A stretch of 64,000 nucleotides of DNA from Gemmatimonadaceae bacterium (lineage in GTDB: Bacteria; Gemmatimonadota; Gemmatimonadetes; Gemmatimonadales; Gemmatimonadaceae): the NCBI GenBank assembly GCA_025358925.1, contig JANYHT010000050.1, positions 62,001 to 126,000 of the forward strand. The letters are read 5' to 3'. A program made the translations under genes and the position numbers. Positions 24,245 through 56,566 of this stretch are shown here, in pieces (the first letter of the stretch is position 1; the number at the start of each line of letters is the position of its first letter). The notes under the pieces were generated by a model. The model worked only from the letters and a program-made list of their open reading frames with translations, was not told where the DNA came from and made no database searches.

Positions 24245-24422
24245 GTTTCACGCGGAGGCACGGAGGACGCGGAGAACAGCATAGCATGCCGAGGCGTGGT
24301 TGTATGTTCTTCTTTCCTTTAATGGGTACGGCGCAGAGTCCGGTCTCATCGCGCGCCGCTGTTGCTGTTCTCCTGTTCTCCGCGCCTCCGTGCCTCCGTG
24401 CCTCCGTGCCTCCGTGTGAAAC
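24245..24422. repeat. Inverted pair of GTTTCACGCGGAGG-family repeats
   Basis: A + copy at 24245-24280 and an inverted copy at 24364-24422 face each other across about 83 bases. The inverted copy is expanded by four exact tandem 8-mers GCCTCCGT (24384-24415). The pair could fold into a long hairpin. It lies between the 992-residue protein and the carbonic anhydrase and contains no convincing gene. Confidence 0.8.
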
Positions 24423-24957: not shown

Positions 24958-25480
24958 CACCTGAGCAAGGTCGTGGATCACATACGGGCCGTCGCTGAAA
25001 TCTGTGTAAGCAAGCAAATGACACATTTGGATGTGTTTCTAAGCAAGCGGGATGGAAAATGACAAGCTCTACTATACTGTTCGTAGACGTTGTCCATGTC
25101 GGATTGCTGCGCGGATGGTGACGGATGCGAGGAACATTCTGTGTTCGCAAGTTTATGTGGGTGCAACGCTTACCTCACTGTCTCAACGAAAAACGCGGAA
25201 ACGTTGCTGGAGTCCGTACGTTGATAGGACTGTCACAAAGGTTGCGTCGTCAAGGGCGAAAAAAGCTCGGTGGATAACGCGACCGCTTTCACATTTCCGT
25301 GATCTGTCTTGTGTAAGTGCAGTATTAACAGAAGGTTACAGCTTCCCTTGCGCGGCATCACGAACCGAGTAACCTACGCGGCCCGCCGGTACGCCGATGA
25401 CGGTGCGATGCCGCACCTCCGCCGCCGACGTTTGTTGCTCGCCAAAGTCCGCCCCACGCCCTAAGTCGGAGTCAGATCGA
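24958..25480. other. Long upstream region of the ribonucleotide reductase gene
   Basis: These 523 bases hold no supported gene. Two identical 9-mers TAAGCAAGC (25007-25015, 25040-25048) flank a 6-bp hairpin (25021-25036). I looked for a cobalamin riboswitch, which often precedes class II reductases, and did not find a convincing B12 box. Promoter elements could not be assigned with confidence. Confidence 0.6.
25021..25036 (+). promoter_or_regulatory. Small hairpin between direct 9-mer repeats
   Basis: ACACAT (25021-25026), loop TTGG, ATGTGT (25031-25036), followed by TTCT. TAAGCAAGC occurs on both sides, 33 bases apart. It may be a terminator for the carbonic anhydrase gene or an operator for the reductase; evidence is only the symmetry. 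Confidence 0.4.
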
Positions 25481-28018
25481 ATGCCATTTTCCGCCACGCC
25501 CCCGGAAGGTCCAGTAACGTTGTCCGCTAACGCGCGGACCGTGCTCGAGAAGCGATATCTCGTCAAGGATCGAACGGGCAAGCCAGTAGAGCAGCCAGAG
25601 GACATGTTCTGGCGCGTGGCGACTGTGGTGGCGGAGGCAGACCGTCGATACGGCGCGAGTGATGGCGGCGTGCAGGCGTTGGCCGAGGAATTTTATTTCC
25701 TCATGACGCAACGTCGGTTTGAGCCAAACTCGCCCACGTTGATGAACGCGGGTCGTCCACTTGGTCAATTGTCGGCGTGCTTCGTTCTGCCGGTGGGTGA
25801 TGCGTTGTCCAACGGGCACGACGGCATCTATGACACGCTGCGCTCGATGGCGCTCATTCACCAAAGCGGCGGCGGAACGGGTTTTTCATTTTCTCGCGTG
25901 CGCGGCAAGGGCAGTATGGTACGGTCGACCACGGGCGTGGCGTCAGGGCCAGTGTCATTCATGAAGTTGTACGACGCGAGCACGGATGCGGTGAAGCAGG
26001 GCGGTACGCGACGTGGGGCCAACATGGGGATTTTGCGTGTCGATCATCCAGACGTGATGGACTTCATCGCGTGTAAAGAAGATCTCACGCAGATCACCAA
26101 CTTCAATATTTCCGTCGGCATCACCACGAAGTTTATGGATGCCGTGAAGGCGGATGGCAGCTACGACCTTATTGAGCCGTCCACGAAAGAAGTGGTGGGT
26201 CAAATGCGCGCGCGTGAGGTGTGGGACAAGATGATTCTGGGCGCGTGGCGTACGGGCGAGCCGGGTGTGTTTTTCATCGACGAAGCCAATCGCTACAACC
26301 CCGTCCCGCATATGGGTGACTACGAGGCCACCAACCCGTGCGGCGAACAACCATTACTCGCTTATGACGTGTGCAACTTGGGCTCGGTCAACTGCGGCTA
26401 TTACGTCACCAATGGCGTGATGGACTGGGACGCGTTCAAGCGCGACATCGCCATCAGTACGCACTTCCTCGACAACATCATCGACGTCAACAAATATCCG
26501 TTGCCGGAAATCGATGCGTTGTCCAAGCGCATTCGTCGCATTGGACTTGGTGTGATGGGTTTTGCCGACATGCTGGTGCGCATGGGCATTCCGTATGACA
26601 GCACGGAAGGCGTCGAGATGGGCCGTCGCGTGATGCAGTTTGTTGACGTCGAGAGCAAGAAGGAAAGTCAGCGTCTTGCGGGAGAGCGTGGTCCGTTCCC
26701 CGAGTGGGCGCAGTCTATCTGGGGCCCTGACGAAACGTGTGCGCGTGATGCGAACGGCGCGCGCATTCGACCATTACAGATGCTGCGCAATTGTAACGTC
26801 ACCACGGTGGCACCAACGGGCACGATTTCCATCATCGCCGGCTGTTCCAGCGGACTAGAGCCACTGTTTGCCGTTGCATTTATGCGCAATCAGGCTGGTG
26901 TGCGCATGCCCGATGTCAACGAAGATTTCATCGCCATCGCCAAGAAAGAAAACTGGTACAGCGATGAACTGATGGAGCGTATCGCCACGACGGGCTCGGT
27001 GAAGCACGCTGAGGTGCCGATCAAATGGCAGGCGGTGTTTAACACGGCCAACAACATTACGCCTGACTATCACATTCGCATGCAAGCGGCGTTTCAACAG
27101 CACTGCGACTCCGCCATCAGCAAAACCACCAACTTCGGATTCTCGGCCACTCAAGACGACGTGCGCGCGATTTACGAAATGGCGTACGAAACGAAGTGCA
27201 AAGGCGTGACGGTGTATCGCGATGGTTCACGCGACAACCAAGTGTTGAGCACGGGTGCCACCGAAGGGGCGGCAGCCAAGCGTGATGGTGCGCCAATCGA
27301 TGCGAAAGCCGAAGCGGCGAGGAAGCGTGAACTGGGCGAACTCCAAGGCACCATTGCTGAGTTGCAGAATGAGTTGGAGCGTACGCAGAAGCAGTTGTTT
27401 AGTGCGGAGTCGGAAAACGCATCGCGTCGTGTGAAACGTTCGCGTCCGGAAACGATGCGTGGCACCACCATTCGCAAAGACACGCCGCTGGGCACGATGT
27501 TCGTGAACATCACAGAAGACGAAAAAGGACAGCCGTTCGAACTGTTCTTAAATCTCGGAAAAGCTGGCGGCAGTGCGATGGCCGATGCGGAGGCGATCGG
27601 TCGCCTCGTGTCGCTCGCGCTCAGAAGTGGTATTCCGATGATGGAAATTCATCGGCAGCTGCGTGGCATTTCGTCAGACCGCGCCGTGGGTCTCGGTCCC
27701 AATAAAGTGTTGTCGATGCCCGATGCGGTGGGTCTCGCGCTGGAGCAGTGGTGGAGAGACAAGCAGGGTGTGCAGCAAGACCTGTTGGGTGGTGGCCAGC
27801 AGGCGCCGGTAAGTTCGCTCGTGCCGCCGCAATCGCTGGCCGGCATTGTGCCAACGTCGCGTCCGCCCGTTGGTGCAGAGCAGATGCAGCCGGACGTGTT
27901 TAGTGGCGGTCACGGTGGTGAGGTGTTCATGGGCACGTGTCCCGATTGCGGCAGCCAGTTGGAGTTTGCCGAAGGGTGCGTGAAGTGCCATGTGTGCGGC
28001 TTCAGCGAATGCGGGTGA
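25481..28018 (+). CDS. nrdJ: Adenosylcobalamin-dependent ribonucleoside-diphosphate reductase (class II)
   Basis: 845 residues from ATG 25481, just after SESDR-coding DNA in an upstream open extension. The core has PNSPTLMNAG and LSACFVLPVGD with the first active-site cysteine, GGGTGFSFSRVR, NPCGEQPLLAYDVCNLGSVN with the radical cysteine, and the late redox segment TKCKGVTVYRDGS. A C-terminal zinc/redox tail ends in CPDCGS, CVKCHVCGFSECG. It makes deoxyribonucleotides without oxygen demand using coenzyme B12. A helical, charged insert (about 610-660) precedes the TSCPD-like domain that begins at RGTTIRKDTPLGT. Confidence 0.95.
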   Translation: MPFSATPPEGPVTLSANARTVLEKRYLVKDRTGKPVEQPEDMFWRVATVVAEADRRYGASDGGVQALAEEFYFLMTQRRFEPNSPTLMNAGRPLGQLSACFVLPVGDALSNGHDGIYDTLRSMALIHQSGGGTGFSFSRVRGKGSMVRSTTGVASGPVSFMKLYDASTDAVKQGGTRRGANMGILRVDHPDVMDFIACKEDLTQITNFNISVGITTKFMDAVKADGSYDLIEPSTKEVVGQMRAREVWDKMILGAWRTGEPGVFFIDEANRYNPVPHMGDYEATNPCGEQPLLAYDVCNLGSVNCGYYVTNGVMDWDAFKRDIAISTHFLDNIIDVNKYPLPEIDALSKRIRRIGLGVMGFADMLVRMGIPYDSTEGVEMGRRVMQFVDVESKKESQRLAGERGPFPEWAQSIWGPDETCARDANGARIRPLQMLRNCNVTTVAPTGTISIIAGCSSGLEPLFAVAFMRNQAGVRMPDVNEDFIAIAKKENWYSDELMERIATTGSVKHAEVPIKWQAVFNTANNITPDYHIRMQAAFQQHCDSAISKTTNFGFSATQDDVRAIYEMAYETKCKGVTVYRDGSRDNQVLSTGATEGAAAKRDGAPIDAKAEAARKRELGELQGTIAELQNELERTQKQLFSAESENASRRVKRSRPETMRGTTIRKDTPLGTMFVNITEDEKGQPFELFLNLGKAGGSAMADAEAIGRLVSLALRSGIPMMEIHRQLRGISSDRAVGLGPNKVLSMPDAVGLALEQWWRDKQGVQQDLLGGGQQAPVSSLVPPQSLAGIVPTSRPPVGAEQMQPDVFSGGHGGEVFMGTCPDCGSQLEFAEGCVKCHVCGFSECG

Positions 28019-33451: not shown

Positions 33452-34345
33452 CTACTTTGCAAGTGACGCTGGCTCATCAATGTAATAGAGATGCGGCCAG
33501 AATTTTCCGGTGAGGGCGACCCGATGACGCGCCGCATCCCACGCAATGCCGTTCGCAACGCCGCCGCGCAGCTTCACGCGACGTTTGTCGTCTGCGCTGA
33601 GCAGTCCTGAGACGTCAAGCCAGCCTAACACGCGTCCGCTTATCGGATCGATACGCGCGATAAAATCGGTTTGATAAATGTTGGCCCACAGTTCGCCCCG
33701 GACCCATTCGAGCTCGTTTAACATAGGTACCGGCGTTCCAGCTTCCGACACGGCGATACGTCGCGTGACACGAAAGCCGTCGCGGTCGAGCACACGAATG
33801 GAATTGGAACCGTCGCTGAGGTAGAGCGATGTGCCGTCCGTTGTAAGTCCCCATCCTTCTCCGTCGTACCGAAGACTGTCGAGGAGTGCAAGCGTAGTCG
33901 CGTTGTACACGTAGCCGCGGCCCGTCTTCCACGTGACTTGATACAATTTCGCGTCGAGCAACGCGATCCCTTCACCAAAATCAGACGACGGCAGTGCTGT
34001 TTTTCGTTCTGCGACACCGGTCGTCGCAGTGACGATGCGGACGTCCGATTTTTCAAAGAGTCCGGTACTTTCGAACATGCGCGCGTTATCGATAACCAAT
34101 CCCTGCGTGTAGGCCAACGTATCGTGCGGAAACGTTCGCACAGCCTTGACGAGAACGCGCGGCGTCGTCGCGTCGAACGGAACAGCCGGTGGCGCTTCAT
34201 CCGCATTGGTTGGCGAGGGAAGTGTGCGCATCCCGCGTGGCAGTGCTGGTGGTTGCTTCGACTCGTTGTCGCTCGCTGTATCACCACACGCCATCAGTGC
34301 GAGACACGCGAGGACGATGGCCGCGCGCGCTCGCCTCATCGCCAT
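33452..34345 (-). CDS. Glutaminyl-peptide cyclotransferase (plant/bacterial type)
   Basis: 297 residues. A lipobox (LALMACGD) ends the leader, so the protein is probably a lipoprotein. The mature region shows the five-bladed propeller signatures of the plant-type glutamine cyclotransferase family: YTQGLVIDNARMFESTGLF, GEGIALLDAKLYQVTWK, GEGWGLTTDGTSLYLSDGS, LNELEWVRGELWANIY and GGVANGIAWDAARHRVALTGK. These enzymes convert N-terminal Gln to pyroglutamate on exported polypeptides, blocking aminopeptidases. The ATG lies inside the last codons of the small upstream ORF, showing translational coupling. Confidence 0.9.
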   Translation of the reverse strand: MAMRRARAAIVLACLALMACGDTASDNESKQPPALPRGMRTLPSPTNADEAPPAVPFDATTPRVLVKAVRTFPHDTLAYTQGLVIDNARMFESTGLFEKSDVRIVTATTGVAERKTALPSSDFGEGIALLDAKLYQVTWKTGRGYVYNATTLALLDSLRYDGEGWGLTTDGTSLYLSDGSNSIRVLDRDGFRVTRRIAVSEAGTPVPMLNELEWVRGELWANIYQTDFIARIDPISGRVLGWLDVSGLLSADDKRRVKLRGGVANGIAWDAARHRVALTGKFWPHLYYIDEPASLAK

Positions 34346-34536
34346 GTCTCGACCGGTTGCTCGGAGACCATTACATGCGTCATACGCAACGCCAGCCGCG
34401 AACCCTTCGAGACGTCAACAGACGATTCGATGAATCTTTGCTCATGCGCCTTATCTCGGTCGCGGTTGAATCCTGGCGTCAGCACCAGCGCGCCTCTTGG
34501 CGCACCACACACGCGAAACGTTTGGCAAAGGGGCAT
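34336..34536 (-). CDS. Small hypothetical ORF coupled to the cyclotransferase gene
   Basis: 66 residues from ATG 34536, ending TGA within the start region of the glutaminyl cyclotransferase (overlap at 34336-34345). Codon use looks coding and the open frame extends a further 27 codons upstream to a TAG at 34618-34620 without another usual start codon. That extension, YIDRSQLNDDAG, also looks protein-like, so the true start may be elsewhere or the 5' end lost. Composition is basic with one Cys pair (C4, C10). No family is recognised. Confidence 0.4.
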   Translation of the reverse strand: MPLCQTFRVCGAPRGALVLTPGFNRDRDKAHEQRFIESSVDVSKGSRLALRMTHVMVSEQPVETWR

Positions 34537-34632
34537 ACGGAGTGTCCCGGCATCGTCGTTGAGTTGCGACCGATCAATGTAACGCTCCGTGAGCTTACCT
34601 GATGCGCGCGGAACGCGCTAACAAAGAATCCG

Positions 34633-36178
34633 CTAAGGGTTCCGACGCGCAGCGATTGCATCGACAACCAGCGACGTCATCGTCTCGGCAAAGCGACGGG
34701 CGTCAAGGTCGAGCATTGGCTGGGAACACACGCGATCACCATACAGACAACCCACAACATCGCCATCCACGGCAATGGGAAACACCCCGAACTGCGCGAC
34801 GCCGAACGACGCAGCCCAACGAACCTCAACGTCGGTCATCTCCCGGTCGAGGGGCAAGTATAGCGTTTGATGGCCCAGTACCGCAGAAGCGACGGGACCG
34901 CCATCCGTAGCAAGCGGAAAGTCGAGGCGCGTGATCAGCGATTCCACGTCGAGTCCAAAACCGGAGCGTGCGAACAATCGCGTCCGGTCGGCGTTGACGA
35001 CGCACGCGATCACACGATCGAACGGCGCACCGCGGAAGGCCCCTTCGAGCGCGAGCAAGAGCACGGGACCAAGTTCGCGTTCGAACTGGGGGTTAATCCG
35101 ACCCTCCAGTTCTTGCTGCAGGCGCTCGCGCAATTGCTGTGTACCAAGCACCGCGGGCGTCGCCGCTTCTACCGCACGCCACTCACCCGACTCTAGCGGT
35201 GCGACGCCCATCGCACAACGTGCTGCATTCGAAAGCTGTCGCATACGCAATGCCCCGATGGCGACGCGCGCGTTCACAAACAATTCTCGCGTTTCGCTGA
35301 GCGCCGCGTCGACAATGTCACGCACTTGTTCGCGTGTAAGCTTCAGGCGGACGCGATACCGCGCCATCAGTTCATCGACGCCTCTTTGCGCGTCGCGCTC
35401 ATCGAGATCACGACGATAGATGACATTCGTGAGCTCATGACCAAACGAGGTAACCGCACTCTCGTCGGCGTGCATTGCTGCAGCCTGCGCACGCATGCCA
35501 ATCAACACAGATTCCGGCATATCCCAAAATCGCGCAACCAGCTCGCCCAATTCTTCGTAGCGAAATCCGAGCACGTTAAACGCCGCCGCATGATCACTCT
35601 TTCGCTCTTCAAACATCATCGTGTGAATGCGCGCATAATCATGCGGAAAATGACAAGCGATTAATACTTCGCCAAGATTGCGGAACATACCGCAGAGATG
35701 CGCTTCTTCAGGAACACCAAGGCCAAGTCGTAGCGCAATCTCTCGCGCGTGATTCGCCGTGATTCGCCGTGAGAAGCGACAGCAACATCAACTCCTTAAG
35801 GCCAGGCGATTGTCGCTGATAGTTCTCAAACGGCAACAAGCTGCTAGCCAGTTGCCGCACGGTCTTGGCGCCGAGCAGCAGCATAGCGTGTGTCGCGCTC
35901 TGAATCGGACGCGTGCTGCGGCGATAGTGCACGCTGTTTGCCGTGCGAATCACGCTGAGCGTCAGGCTATACTCGCGCAACACCACATTCGCCAAGCGCT
36001 GCAGCGATTGGCCGTCGTCATCCAGCGCCGTGATCGTATCAATGATCTGGCGCGAGAGCGCCGGAAAGTTGCTCCCCTCGCGAATTCGCGCGAGATAGTG
36101 CTGCGCCGGCGCGAGAAAGTCGGCGGCTCCGTCAACGAGTTCACGCGCATCCGGACGGACGGTAGTTCTGATCAGCAT
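34633..36178 (-). pseudogene. HDOD-domain protein gene interrupted by a 10-bp tandem duplication
   Basis: Two minus-strand pieces form one protein. The 5' piece (36178 to 35708) holds the front of an HDOD domain: ANVVLREYSLTLSVIRTAN, ATHAMLLLGAKTVRQLA and LLSLLTANH. The 3' piece resumes in another frame: GMFRNLGEVLIACHFPHDY, then a coiled region and a GAF-like C-terminal domain (about 320-500). Between them GATTCGCCGT is present twice in tandem (35751-35770). Removing one copy restores 1,536 bases (511 residues) and reads TANHAREIALRLGLGVPEE across the junction. HDOD-GAF proteins usually act in signalling. Mutation, phase variation or an assembly error are all possible. The 3' piece could still be translated from ATG 35688. 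Confidence 0.88.
35748..35770. repeat. Tandem 10-bp duplication (2.3 copies)
   Basis: CGT followed by GATTCGCCGT twice gives a 23-base stretch of 10-bp periodicity. The copies are identical. The unit is not a multiple of three, so it shifts the HDOD reading frame. Confidence 0.95.
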
Positions 36179-36281
36179 TCACGGTCGATAAAAGGTCTCC
36201 GTAGCAGTATCGGCAGCCATATGGTGTCACTCAACTCGTCAATGTCACTACATTTCACTCGTACCGATCTCAGGAGATCAC

Positions 36282-36449
36282 ATGACCATGAAAAAGAAGA
36301 ACAACAGCGCCATTCCGGACTTTTCGCGAAAACGACCGGTGGCGGGCGACAAGCCGATTGTGGCAGGCGACAAGACGCACACGCCAAATCCTCGGCAACC
36401 ACAGAAGCCGCCGGCCAAAGCTAAGAATGGCGGGCGCCGCGGTACGTGA
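36282..36449 (+). CDS. Small basic Pro/Lys-rich protein
   Basis: 55 residues from ATG 36282, 5 bases after AGGAG (36272-36276); ATG 36288 is an alternative at 11 bases. The product is strongly basic (MKKKNN start, GGRRGT end). It holds an imperfect internal repeat, RPVAGDK then PIVAGDK, and a proline-rich tail (PRQPQKPPAK). No hydrophobic core is seen, so it is probably disordered; nucleic-acid or ribosome binding would be conceivable. It is divergent from the HDOD gene and followed at once by a strong hairpin. Ribosome-binding site, hairpin and clean frame together support a real gene. Confidence 0.65.
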   Translation: MTMKKKNNSAIPDFSRKRPVAGDKPIVAGDKTHTPNPRQPQKPPAKAKNGGRRGT

Positions 36450-36455
36450 ATCTCG

Positions 36456-36486
36456 CGCGCCTTCACGTAACACTCGTGAAGGCGCG
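36456..36486 (+). terminator. Strong 12-bp hairpin after the small basic-protein gene
   Basis: CGCGCCTTCACG (36456-36467) and CGTGAAGGCGCG (36475-36486) are perfect complements around a 7-base loop, beginning 6 bases after the stop codon. The downstream bases (TGGTGAATACC) lack a T run, so it may stabilise the RNA 3' end as well as terminate. Confidence 0.65.
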
Positions 36487-36602
36487 TGGTGAATACCCAA
36501 TGGCCGTTTCGCCGAGGAGGGCGCGTTTGGTAGCGACGACAAAGGCCGCGAACTCGTGCTCGATGTTGCCGCGCGCAAGTACAGCGCTTGTACTACCGTG
36601 GT

Positions 36603-39455
36603 TCACGGCTTCACCGCACCGGCAGCGCCGGCCCGCCGTGGATCAGCGCCTGCGGTGACAGACTTACCGTCAATCGAGATCGCGGCTCCATAGCCTTCGC
36701 GCAGTTCACCGCGCATGGATACGAAGCTGATGTCGTAGCCGAGCATGCGAAGTTTTGCGATGACGGACGGCGCAAAACCATCTTCCAGTTGGATGTTATA
36801 CGGTGTCGGCGCAGTAGGTGCAGCAGCAGCACCGCCACTGCCAGCGGGAAGAAACCGCGGCAACTCCAACGCTAGTTGTGGATCGAGACCAAAGTCGAGC
36901 GCGCCGATGAGCGTTTCGTACACTGCCGCCGTGATCCACGCGTTGCCAGCGGCTCCAACCGCGAACACTGGCCGTTTTCCCTTAAATGCTATAGTTGGCG
37001 CTAGGGTGCTGCCGTGCCGAGCAAACGGCAATCGCGATCCGTACTGCGTGGGATCCGTGCCATAAGACGTCAGCTTGTCGTTGCTGAGAAAACCGAGTCC
37101 TGGCGTAACATAAAAGTTGCCACCCCACGTACCGAGCGTTTGGGTGACGGCGACGGCGTTTCCTTCGTTATCGGCGACAGTGAATGCAGTTGTACCGGCC
37201 GCGTGGCACACGGTCATTTCGAGCGCGTGCTCCGGTCCGCACGGCGATTCGGCGCGCAGCGTGGCCACAGCATCGCTACGCTCACTCGGTGCCTTTACGG
37301 CGTCGACTGGCTTGATGTTCTTCAAGCACGACAACGTGTCACCGCGCACATCGATTGGGCGCAATGCTTTCTCGGCGTTGAAGCAACCCCAACGCACATG
37401 TGCGGTATCGCGATTTACAATGGGCGCGATGTCAACCGGCCACAATGCGGGGTCGGCGATGCGATTGCGCGAGGACGGCACAAGAAACCACGCGCTGAGC
37501 ATCGCGTGGAGTGTGTTTGCGTCGTCCGTATAATTTGTCGGCTTTGGAAATTGCTCCAGCAAATTGAGACGAGCCACCAATTCGGCCCCACCACTTACGG
37601 GCGGCGCGCTCGAGTAGATGGTGTAGCCGCGATACGTGCCAGACACGGGTTCTCGCTCTGGCGCAAAGTATCGCGCAAGGTCGGACAGCTTCATCGCGTT
37701 GCCCTTCGCGTGCATGTCGTCCACCCACTTTTTCGCCACGTCACCTTTGTAAAAACCGTCTGCGCCATTTTTGGCGATCTGTTCAAGCACCCATGCGAGA
37801 TCGGGATTTCGGAGCGTGTCTCCGGCAACGAGCGGCTGGCCGTCACGAAAGAACAACGCGCGACTGCCTTCGTATTTGGCAAAGTGCTCGCGCTCCGTCG
37901 CCAGCGTGGTCGCAAGTCCTTCACTCACGGCATAACCATTGCGCGCGGCGCGAATTGCGGGCTGTAGCAGCGCACTCCAGGGTACTTTCTTGCTGCCGTA
38001 CTTGAGCCACGCCGCATGCATCCCGCCAACCGTACCCGGTACATTCACCAACACCGGCCCATCCGACGGATACCGACCGTTCTGCAGCAATGAGGTGTTG
38101 GACAGTGGTGCGTCTTCTGGAACGCGGCTCATAAACTCGATGAGTGTCGGCTTGCTCATCGATGCCATGGTGATCACCATCTCTCCGTATCCGCCAACAC
38201 CACTCGCGTCCGGCTCTACAACGCCGAGCGCAAAACTCACGGCGACGGCGGCGTCGACCACGTTGCCGCCGGCGCGCAATATCTCTAAGCCCGCTTCCGT
38301 CGACACCGGATGGGCGCTCGATACGGCAGCACGTCCGGTCGCTGCCACGCGCAGTGGCGGACGATCTTTGAGCATCGCGTAAATATGCGCTTGCAATGCG
38401 TCCTCAGTGGTAGCGGCCATCGCTGCCGGACGATGCTTGCGCTTCACCGCGTCCCATAACGCGAGTCGCGGCGCAGCATCAGAGCTCGAAAAATACAGTT
38501 TCGCCGAACGTTCCCACACGCGATCAAACGCCTCTGCGTTGTGCGCCGTACGATCAAGCAACACCGACACTTTGTACTCGGATGTCGTGCCATCCGGCGC
38601 AACGGGCGCATTCACGAAATACAGCGCGTCTGTACTCAGTGCACGATCGACGGCCGACCGATCGAGCCCGCGATCCGGATCACCATTGTACGCGACGGCC
38701 ACGTCATCCGACTCGGCGATCGCAAGCACGCGTCCGTCCGGCGACCACGCTACGTCGCCATGTCGCGACGACGCGAAATTGGTCCAACGGCCGTTCGGCG
38801 GCACTACAAACACACCGGAGCGCGACGAATACGCGAGTCGATCGCCTGATGGGGACCACGCGATGCGTTCTGCATTTCCATCGCTATTGGCGGTGTTTTC
38901 TGCAGCTGATGCGACGGTGCGCACATAAATGCGACGACCTGTTTCTGTGGCCGAGATAAACGCGATGCGCGCGCCATCAGGCGAGAACTTCGGTGCGCTT
39001 TCCATCTGCTCGCGCGTGGTTAGTCGATGCTCGTGACCACTGGCATCCCGCATCCAGATACGCTGCGCTTGGCCCGCGCCGCGCACGAAGGCGATGCCGC
39101 CATCCGGTGCAACGCTCGGGGATGTTTCTGGTTGTGCGGTCCCGAAAATTCGTTCCGGTGTACCTGCGGTGCCATCAACTGCGATGGTCACGCGCCATAA
39201 GTCGTAATTACCGCTACGATCCGAGGCGAATACGATCGCCGATCCATCGCGCGTCCACACGGGATCTCGGTCCCAGGGTAATCCGCTGGTCACGCGCTGC
39301 ACGGACAAATCGCCGCTGCGCTGTACAAAAATGTCGCCACCAACCGCAAACGCTAATCGGCCATCGGGCGCGTACGACGGACCGCGCGCACCATGCAAGA
39401 GCGCCGAATCAGGTGCGATCTGCAACAGGAGCGCGGCTACTAACGCGATGTGCAC
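36603..39455 (-). CDS. TolB-like propeller fused to gamma-glutamyltransferase
   Basis: 950 residues from GTG 39455, 10 bases after the PPIase stop and preceded by AAGGA. A short signal segment (VHIALVAALLLQIAP) comes first. Propeller blades with the TolB/WD40-like pattern (PSYAPDGRLAFAV, PVWTRDGSAIVFASDRSG, PKFSPDGARIAFIS, IAWSPSGDRLAYSS) occupy about 20-300. The GGT part starts near 365 (AAVSSAHPVSTEAGLEILR, AGGNVVDAAVAVSFALG). Its presumed nucleophile threonine is in AGTTAFTVADNEGNAVA (about 755), with VGAAGNAWITAAV later. Compared with the stand-alone GGT at 11.3 kb, the processing-site context is different. The fused propeller may bind or position the peptide substrate (inference). Confidence 0.85.
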   Translation of the reverse strand: MHIALVAALLLQIAPDSALLHGARGPSYAPDGRLAFAVGGDIFVQRSGDLSVQRVTSGLPWDRDPVWTRDGSAIVFASDRSGNYDLWRVTIAVDGTAGTPERIFGTAQPETSPSVAPDGGIAFVRGAGQAQRIWMRDASGHEHRLTTREQMESAPKFSPDGARIAFISATETGRRIYVRTVASAAENTANSDGNAERIAWSPSGDRLAYSSRSGVFVVPPNGRWTNFASSRHGDVAWSPDGRVLAIAESDDVAVAYNGDPDRGLDRSAVDRALSTDALYFVNAPVAPDGTTSEYKVSVLLDRTAHNAEAFDRVWERSAKLYFSSSDAAPRLALWDAVKRKHRPAAMAATTEDALQAHIYAMLKDRPPLRVAATGRAAVSSAHPVSTEAGLEILRAGGNVVDAAVAVSFALGVVEPDASGVGGYGEMVITMASMSKPTLIEFMSRVPEDAPLSNTSLLQNGRYPSDGPVLVNVPGTVGGMHAAWLKYGSKKVPWSALLQPAIRAARNGYAVSEGLATTLATEREHFAKYEGSRALFFRDGQPLVAGDTLRNPDLAWVLEQIAKNGADGFYKGDVAKKWVDDMHAKGNAMKLSDLARYFAPEREPVSGTYRGYTIYSSAPPVSGGAELVARLNLLEQFPKPTNYTDDANTLHAMLSAWFLVPSSRNRIADPALWPVDIAPIVNRDTAHVRWGCFNAEKALRPIDVRGDTLSCLKNIKPVDAVKAPSERSDAVATLRAESPCGPEHALEMTVCHAAGTTAFTVADNEGNAVAVTQTLGTWGGNFYVTPGLGFLSNDKLTSYGTDPTQYGSRLPFARHGSTLAPTIAFKGKRPVFAVGAAGNAWITAAVYETLIGALDFGLDPQLALELPRFLPAGSGGAAAAPTAPTPYNIQLEDGFAPSVIAKLRMLGYDISFVSMRGELREGYGAAISIDGKSVTAGADPRRAGAAGAVKP

Positions 39456-39465
39456 TGTGCAATCC

Positions 39466-41328
39466 TTATTTAACGGTGGTGGGCTTTCGCACGATGCGAA
39501 TTGATTCGATAACGTCGCCTTCTTGTATTCGATCGACAACATCCATACCATCGGTTACACGCGCAAACACCGTGTATTCGTGATCGAGACGGAAATTGTC
39601 AACGAGATTGATGAAGAGTTGCCCGTCTCCGGTGTCGCGTCCGCGTGTTGAGATTCCAAGCGTACCGCGCACATGCGACAGGAGACCGACTTCGTCACGT
39701 AGGAAGGTGGGCGTGATACCGTCATATTCGTCGGCGCCTGGGCTACCCCCTTGAATGACGAAGTTCGCCACAATACGATGAAATGTGAGTCCCTTGAACG
39801 TCCCACGTTCACTTAATTGCGCGAACGTCGCGACTGTCACCGGCGCATCGTCGGTGAGCAGCTCCAACGTGATTGTGCCCAAATCCTTCATGCGAATAGT
39901 TGCTGTTGCGCCGCGTAGTGCCGAGACGTCGGCATCGGACTGGAGCGGCGCGGGTACGTAGCGCGTCGTTGTCGGCTGCGCGGCGTTGCCCGACTTCTGC
40001 GAAATGATCTTTGCGGCGAGTGCGGCGACCACTGGATCGACGTCAGCGAGCAGTGGGTGTAACGCGGCTACCATGCTTTTGTCATCGACCTCACCAAGCC
40101 GATTGAGCGCCGCAACGCGCGGCTCGCGTACGGTGGCGCGGCCAGTGCGCGTGAAGCGTTGCAGCGAGGCAAGCAGCGGCGATTGAGCATTCGCCAGTGC
40201 AGCGGTACCCTGCAAATGTTCCGCGGCTGCAAATGCGAGACCCGCGTGCGTGCTCATCAGGCCGCGCAGCGCATCGGCGGAAGTCGTCATAGCCGCAATC
40301 GCCACATTCGGTTCACGATCCTTCGCCAACAACGAGAGCGTTTCGCTGTCCTTCAACAGCTTGGCGGCTGTCGCGGCCCATGCGCGCTCCTGCCAGATCT
40401 TCGAGGTTGCCGCTTCGCGCACGTGCGGTTTCGCCGCGTCTGGCGCAACGTTGGCTAACGAAACAAGCGCATGCGCGCGAACGCGCCACGATGCCCCACG
40501 AAGCACCATCGATTCGATCACGCGGGCGTCGCAATTTCGTTGGCCTAACGCATCCGCAACGGCTAGCGTGACCATCTCGCTGGGGTCGTCGACGCTGTTC
40601 ATGAGCCGACCGCAGGTGGCAGCGAGGTGCATGACTTCGTAACGCACGATTGGCGACGCATCGTCGATAAATTGTCGTGTGCCAAGCACTGCCAGGCGGC
40701 GCACCTGCGGACTCGCGTCGCGCAGTGCGATCGCGAAGGTCGTTGAATCGTGATCCCCAGCTGTGTTGAGCGCGAGCAGCCCTAGTTCACGCAATGACTC
40801 GCTCTCGTTATCGCGAATCGCGCGACGTATCGCGATGAGTGTGATTAACGCTGGTTTAGCGGTGCGCGCGTTACGACGAATCAGTGACTCCAACCCTCTC
40901 GCGGCACCAACGCGTGCGTCAACACTCGCGTCGGACAATCCACCCAGCAGGACCGGCTCCGCGTCCGAGAACACACTGCGCGCCGATCGCCCAAGGGATT
41001 CGTAGATCATCGCGCGCACACGACCGCTTTTTTCGGCGGGAAGTAGCGACGCGAACGGGTATGTTGCTCCCATCTGCGCCAGCGCATTTACGGCTTCACG
41101 CCGCACGTCGACATCGGCGGCGATCGTGAGTGGCTCAACGTCGCGCTGCAACGCAGGACGTTCGAGTCGGCCAATCGCACGCACGGCCAATCGCTGGATT
41201 TTCGTGTTCGAACTTTTGAGTGCGGCGACTAACTCCAGCGCGTTGTCCGTACGCACATGTTCCAGCTCGAGAATTCGCCGCTCCGACGGATCTTGCGTGA
41301 GCAACGGCAGCAACAGAAGCCAGATCAT
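39466..41328 (-). CDS. HEAT-repeat protein with C-terminal cyclophilin-type PPIase
   Basis: 620 residues. A short hydrophobic leader (MIWLLLLPLLTQ) suggests export. Alpha-helical HEAT/PBS-like repeats fill about 25-460 (for example QRLAVRAIGRLERPALQRD and DVRREAVNALAQMGA). A cyclophilin domain follows (about 475-620): FHRIVANFVIQGGSP, DEVGLLSHVRGTLGIST, GDGQLFINLVDNFRLDHEYTVF and GMDVVDRI. It would isomerise prolyl bonds of envelope proteins, with the HEAT array as a binding scaffold. The WRIP-type Trp of drug-sensitive cyclophilins is replaced by the bacterial LDHEY motif. It heads a two-gene operon with the propeller-GGT fusion. Confidence 0.92.
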   Translation of the reverse strand: MIWLLLLPLLTQDPSERRILELEHVRTDNALELVAALKSSNTKIQRLAVRAIGRLERPALQRDVEPLTIAADVDVRREAVNALAQMGATYPFASLLPAEKSGRVRAMIYESLGRSARSVFSDAEPVLLGGLSDASVDARVGAARGLESLIRRNARTAKPALITLIAIRRAIRDNESESLRELGLLALNTAGDHDSTTFAIALRDASPQVRRLAVLGTRQFIDDASPIVRYEVMHLAATCGRLMNSVDDPSEMVTLAVADALGQRNCDARVIESMVLRGASWRVRAHALVSLANVAPDAAKPHVREAATSKIWQERAWAATAAKLLKDSETLSLLAKDREPNVAIAAMTTSADALRGLMSTHAGLAFAAAEHLQGTAALANAQSPLLASLQRFTRTGRATVREPRVAALNRLGEVDDKSMVAALHPLLADVDPVVAALAAKIISQKSGNAAQPTTTRYVPAPLQSDADVSALRGATATIRMKDLGTITLELLTDDAPVTVATFAQLSERGTFKGLTFHRIVANFVIQGGSPGADEYDGITPTFLRDEVGLLSHVRGTLGISTRGRDTGDGQLFINLVDNFRLDHEYTVFARVTDGMDVVDRIQEGDVIESIRIVRKPTTVK

Positions 41329-56545: not shown

Positions 56546-56566
56546 TCCCTACTCCCTACTCCCTAT
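56546..56566 (+). repeat. Three 7-bp TCCCTAC/T tandem repeats before a start codon
   Basis: TCCCTAC, TCCCTAC, TCCCTAT occupy the space directly before the Gfo/Idh/MocA ATG (56568), leaving no normal ribosome-binding site there. Related units TCCCTATTGCCTGTTCCC occur at 43426-43443 at the end of the PagL-like gene. Confidence 0.75.

What the first reader, a model, noticed from the sequence alone, without database searches (positions are those of the whole stretch)
35708..35770. HDOD gene split by an exact 10-bp tandem duplication
GATTCGCCGT occurs twice in a row at 35751-35770. Deleting one copy restores a continuous 511-residue HDOD-GAF-like protein with sensible sequence across the join (TANHAREIALRLGLGVPEE). 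A clean in-frame repair from one event argues for a recent slip. It could be a reversible on/off switch of a signalling protein heading a five-gene envelope operon, or a fresh null mutation.
Basis: seen in the sequence. Interest (0 to 1): 0.72.

Follow-up and report, generated by a model that had tools for sequence, protein, structure and literature searches.

The report
Signalling gene broken by 10-base duplication
A bacterial signalling gene carries an exact 10-base stutter that throws it out of frame; related species have the gene intact or have lost it in other ways, so this looks like an ordinary recent gene loss and not an on/off switch.

Summary
An exact period-10 tract (35748-35772, 2.5 copies) lies in a minus-strand gene. 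Removing one unit joins 156-aa and 351-aa fragments into a 511-aa HDOD-GAF protein. All 22 homologues aligned from the same genus have a single copy; nearly all read (S)LL(T)ANHAR at the join, as the one-copy window form does. So the two-gene layout is not ancestral: it is a frameshift.

The likeliest reading is a recent null mutation by replication slippage between two 5-bp repeats (TCACG) 10 bp apart. The sister species G018 (about 88.5% nt identity, same gene order) has lost the gene at the same site by a ~1.25-kb deletion plus stops. A third species, G006, has lost it by other deletions plus a stop, while its close relative G017 keeps a continuous frame. The window copy was still constrained after it split from G018: 0 private changes against 10 in G018. 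The gene is therefore dispensable and repeatedly lost. A switch is not excluded without reads, but nothing supports it: two copies only, no tract in relatives. The gene stands alone (287-bp and 424-bp gaps) and does not clearly head an operon. Interest is low.

The parts
34633..36178 (-). HDOD-GAF signalling gene, out of frame in this assembly (frameshifted pseudogene)
   Evidence: One-unit-fewer reading gives 511 aa, HDOD 116.7 bits; 18 genus members have the gene in a continuous frame at 52-58% identity, two of them (G008, G019) cut by contig ends
35748..35772 (.). Exact period-10 tandem duplication, 2.5 copies (CGTGATTCGC CGTGATTCGC CGTGA); the lesion, +10 bp = +1 frame
   Evidence: absent from all aligned homologues
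35708..36178 (-). Upstream fragment, 156 aa: true to the family to about residue 143, then 13 out-of-frame residues and a stop; holds HDOD profile positions 2-96 of 196
34633..35688 (-). Downstream fragment, 351 aa from an internal ATG (residue 161 of the merged protein): rest of HDOD (profile 127-193) and GAF-like C-terminus
   Evidence: structure model of orthologue L003 matches HDOD chains 3hc1 and SadB 9qzk and GAF chains such as 3ci6
34869..36120 (.). Segment missing at the same syntenic site in sister species G018, where the gene survives only as a decayed remnant
   Evidence: blastn blocks 34650-34868 and 36121 onward lie about 35 bp apart in G018 C133 (12448/12483)

Best explanation
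A recent loss-of-function frameshift. Replication slipped between two TCACG repeats 10 bp apart in a single-copy HDOD-GAF gene and duplicated 10 bp. Translation now leaves frame near residue 143, inside a core HDOD helix, and stops after 156 residues. The 351-aa downstream piece lacks most of HDOD and is at best made by re-initiation. The gene is dispensable in this genus and has been lost at least three separate ways. Shown: the duplication, the continuous one-copy gene in relatives, the other two losses, and the lack of private changes in the window copy. Inferred: slippage as the mechanism, that no functional protein is made, and that reversion plays no biological role.
For: One exact event explains the break. 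All 22 aligned homologues have one copy and a continuous frame across the join. HDOD and GGT (neighbour gene) trees place the window with the same two species, G007 and G009, fitting vertical inheritance. The one-copy form holds TCACG twice at 10-bp spacing, the usual microhomology for slippage. In sister G018 (88.5% nt, syntenic) the gene is a remnant whose codon positions diverge equally (16/71, 17/73, 19/72) against about 0.06/0.04/0.23 in neighbours, i.e. decay without constraint. Of 35 outgroup-conserved columns, G018 has 10 private changes and the window none, so the window copy was still selected after the split. G006 lost the gene independently while its syntenic relative G017 keeps it whole. 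No slippery heptamer or homopolymer of 4 or more in the frame overlap. A close experimental parallel: 26-116-bp tandem duplications in Xenorhabdus lrp were classed with plain mutations, none of which reverted to the functional sequence in the isolates tested (PMC6786866).
Against: No reads and no second strain of the species could be examined, so assembly error or a mixed population is not excluded. The duplicated region is deleted in G018, so a shared duplication cannot be excluded directly. The window branch for HDOD is long (0.56 against 0.33 for GGT), and 20 of 153 otherwise invariant positions are changed, so constraint may have loosened before the frameshift.
Confidence: 0.83

Rival explanations
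1. Assembly or binning artefact: the living cells carry one copy (or both alleles coexist in the sampled population) and the consensus took the wrong one.
For: The genome is a 72-contig assembly with 1.11% estimated contamination; the one-copy form is fully sensible and the gene shows no other lesion.
Against: A 25-bp tract is far shorter than a read, and sequencing errors rarely copy exactly 10 bp (general knowledge). It is the only such gene-splitting duplication in 324 kb. Loss of the same gene in two other species fits a real loss.
Confidence: 0.1
2. Reversible phase switch: slippage between one copy (on) and two copies (off) turns the HDOD-GAF protein on and off.
For: Deletion of one unit restores the frame exactly. 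Tandem duplications controlling phase variation are described for pneumococcal capsule genes (Waite 2001, 2003, cited in PMC4022640).
Against: Only 2.5 copies, against the many-copy tracts usual in contingency loci (general knowledge); no tract at this site in any homologue. The gene is deleted or decayed in two other species, the nearest included, where a kept switch would be expected to persist. Three copies would also be out of frame.
Confidence: 0.05
3. Genuine split: two separately useful proteins, or one made by programmed frameshifting or re-initiation (ORF1 stop to ORF2 ATG is about 20 bp).
For: The ATG at 35688 lies just downstream of the ORF1 stop; both halves have open frames.
Against: The cut falls inside HDOD (halves match profile 2-96 and 127-193) and, by alignment, within model helix 111-134 of the orthologue. 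No slippery sequence. No relative has this layout.
Confidence: 0.02

Closest known systems
Frameshift pseudogene from short tandem duplication by replication slippage (for example the 26-116-bp tandem duplications in Xenorhabdus nematophila lrp, PMC6786866)
   Same: Exact tandem duplication within a regulatory gene, loss of function, no sign of a dedicated switching mechanism
   Different: Here 10 bp, in a HDOD-GAF gene, seen in an assembly; reversion untested
Tandem-duplication phase variation of pneumococcal capsule genes (type 3 locus, cap8E, tts; Waite et al. 2001, 2003, known here from the text and reference list of PMC4022640)
   Same: Tandem duplication inside a coding sequence; one copy restores the frame
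   Different: There phase variation was reported; here no evidence of reversion, a 10-bp unit, and the gene is otherwise being lost in the genus
HDOD-domain proteins with solved structures: 3hc1 (Geobacter), 9qzk (SadB, Pseudomonas aeruginosa), 3m1t (Shewanella)
   Same: HDOD domain by sequence and by fold
   Different: The orthologues in this genus carry a C-terminal GAF-like domain, and the window copy is broken

Membership tests
Recent frameshift pseudogene | Continuous-frame orthologues exist in relatives and a single lesion explains the break | tested here: met
   18 genus members with a continuous frame, one 10-bp event
Recent frameshift pseudogene | Little or no further decay outside the lesion | tested here: met
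   No other stop or frameshift in 511 codons; 0 private changes in 35 conserved columns against 10 in G018
Recent frameshift pseudogene | Lesion present in the organism's DNA reads | not testable with these tools
   No reads available
Phase-variable repeat (contingency) locus | Multi-copy or conserved repeat tract in the gene among relatives | tested here: not met
   All aligned homologues have one copy
Phase-variable repeat (contingency) locus | Both alleles found, with reversion | not testable with these tools
   Needs reads or a culture
HDOD family (PF08668) | Profile match above the curated cut-off over the whole domain | tested here: met
   116.7 bits against 22.9, positions 2-193 of 196, for the one-copy reading
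GAF domain (PF01590) | Profile match above the curated cut-off | tested here: not met
   17.1 bits against 22.4; fold of the orthologue nevertheless matches solved GAF domains (3ci6, E 1.8e-4)
Programmed ribosomal frameshift gene | Slippery heptamer or homopolymer in the frame overlap | tested here: not met
   None in 35700-35795

The most novel reading that the evidence does not exclude
The duplication is one state of a slow, reversible slippage switch in a signalling gene whose loss is repeatedly favoured in the genus, so that cells can lose and regain HDOD-GAF signalling.
Probability: 0.05. Interest if true: 0.5.

Novelty: new member of a known kind. Interest (0 to 1): 0.16.

Why it matters
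It is a clean example of gene loss in progress: one signalling gene caught just after its first lesion in one species, gutted in the sister species and lost by other deletions in a third. That marks this HDOD-GAF gene as conditionally dispensable in the genus. It also warns that a perfect one-step repair is not by itself evidence of a switch.

Tried and rejected
Scan of genome contigs for a second strain or near relative: only one distant hit, 23% identity. Programmed frameshifting: no slippery site. Other frame-relevant tandem repeats in the window: the 8-bp array at 24384-24416 precedes the likely start of the next gene, and the 7-bp array at 56546-56565 is intergenic, so neither splits a gene. 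Operon and synteny test: HDOD orthologues in four other genomes have no window neighbours beside them, and a Pfam scan of their neighbours gave no clear common partner. Sigma-70 promoter scan of 34200-36700: none found; two terminator-like matches, fewer than shuffles give. A paper search for pseudogenes in Gemmatimonas found nothing relevant. A first alignment of relatives was discarded because minus-strand loci had not been turned; one search replaces it.

Full report
What is there. On the minus strand, 36178-34633, lie two ORFs of 156 aa (36178-35708) and 351 aa (35688-34633) in different frames. Between their frames sits an exact period-10 tract at 35748-35772: CGTGATTCGC CGTGATTCGC CGTGA, 2.5 copies with a 15-bp match run. 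Simulated sequence of the same third-order composition gave no tandem run that long in 40 trials. In 324 kb of the same contig it is the only tandem duplication whose removal joins a recognisable gene.

The repaired reading is right. With one unit fewer the frame is open for 511 aa. It scores 116.7 bits against Pfam HDOD over positions 2-193 of 196, while the separate halves score 50.8 and 30.1. The C-terminus is GAF-like: below the Pfam cut-off by sequence, but the AlphaFold2 model of orthologue L003 (mean pLDDT 79.6) matches solved HDOD chains (3hc1, 3m1t, SadB 9qzk) and solved GAF domains (3ci6, 3oov). By alignment the join falls within helix 111-134 of that model.

Relatives. In the 30 genomes of the genus, 18 hold the orthologue in a continuous frame at 52-58% identity; two of these (G008, G019) are cut by contig ends. 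Every one of 22 aligned homologues, paralogues included, has a single copy at the join, and nearly all read SLLTANHAR there, as the one-copy window form does. So the two-gene layout is not an ancestral split. HDOD and GGT trees both place the window next to G007 and G009, which fits vertical inheritance. From memory, the length of genome G020 (4,636,964 bp) is that of Gemmatimonas aurantiaca T-27; this is a lead, not a test.

The gene is being lost. The nearest species, G018 (neighbour protein 93% identical, about 88.5% nt identity over the shared region), has the same gene order, but its HDOD gene is a remnant: the window segment 34869-36120 is missing and stops interrupt what is left. That remnant differs from the window at 16/71, 17/73 and 19/72 sites for codon positions 1, 2 and 3; neighbouring genes show about 0.06, 0.04 and 0.23. 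It therefore evolves without constraint. Of 35 columns conserved in the outgroups, G018 has changed 16 and the window 6, all 6 shared; so 10 changes are private to G018 and none to the window. The window copy thus stayed under selection after the split, and its lesion is probably recent and separate. The numbers are small, and the duplicated stretch itself is gone in G018, so a shared duplication cannot be excluded directly. A third species, G006, has lost the gene by two internal deletions and a TAG stop, while G017, 93% identical around it, keeps it whole.

Mechanism. The one-copy form contains TCACG twice at 10-bp spacing, so slippage between these repeats would copy exactly this unit. L020 has the same pair and no duplication. 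No slippery heptamer or homopolymer of four or more lies in the frame overlap. The truncated product ends within HDOD, and the downstream ATG would give a protein lacking most of it.

Switch or null. Nothing beyond the clean repair speaks for a switch. Two copies of a 10-mer can revert, but no relative keeps a tract, two species have lost the gene by other routes, and three copies would also be out of frame. Precedents exist both ways: tandem duplications in pneumococcal capsule genes were reported as phase variation (Waite 2001, 2003, as cited in PMC4022640), whereas in Xenorhabdus the lrp mutations of phenotypic variants, among them 26-116-bp tandem duplications, were judged plain mutations: no tested isolate restored the functional sequence (PMC6786866). 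Without reads, an assembly error (about 10%) or a mixed population stays open.

Surroundings. The gene does not clearly head an operon: the next minus-strand gene (glutamine cyclotransferase, 33452-34345) starts 287 bp downstream, and the GGT-domain gene (36603-39551) ends 424 bp upstream; a small plus-strand ORF near 36283-36447 is divergent from it. Orthologues in four other genomes have different neighbours.

Verdict. It is an ordinary frameshift pseudogene, made mildly interesting by repeated loss of the same gene in the genus.

Noticed in passing
window 25397-28018 (+); L124 1500-3386 (-): The ribonucleotide reductase gene has no intein in the window, but the G013 copy carries one (Intein_splicing and LAGLIDADG_3 matches within the barrel domain). 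Several other genus members show the same interruption near residues 306-317.
   Followed up: partly
window 24384-24416: An 8-bp repeat GCCTCCGT in 4.1 copies lies just upstream of the likely start of a gene encoding a hexapeptide-repeat-like protein, with an inverted GGAGGCACGGAGG-type partner near 24254-24270.
   Followed up: partly
G000 genome-wide; related heptamers at window 56546-56565: TAGGGAT-type heptamer arrays are scattered through the genome (58 exact matches to TAGGGATTAGGGAT), many in what look like intergenic gaps, with up to 8.7 copies in the part of contig C62 sampled.
   Followed up: partly
window 36283-36447 (+): A small ORF beginning MTMKKKNNSAIPDFSRKRPVAGDK, divergent from the HDOD gene, is visibly better conserved in G018 than its flanks; function unknown.
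   Followed up: no
G006:C1:606949-607509: A second HDOD-like stretch with two in-frame TAG codons (256-aa frame), possibly another decaying HDOD gene in that genome.
   Followed up: no
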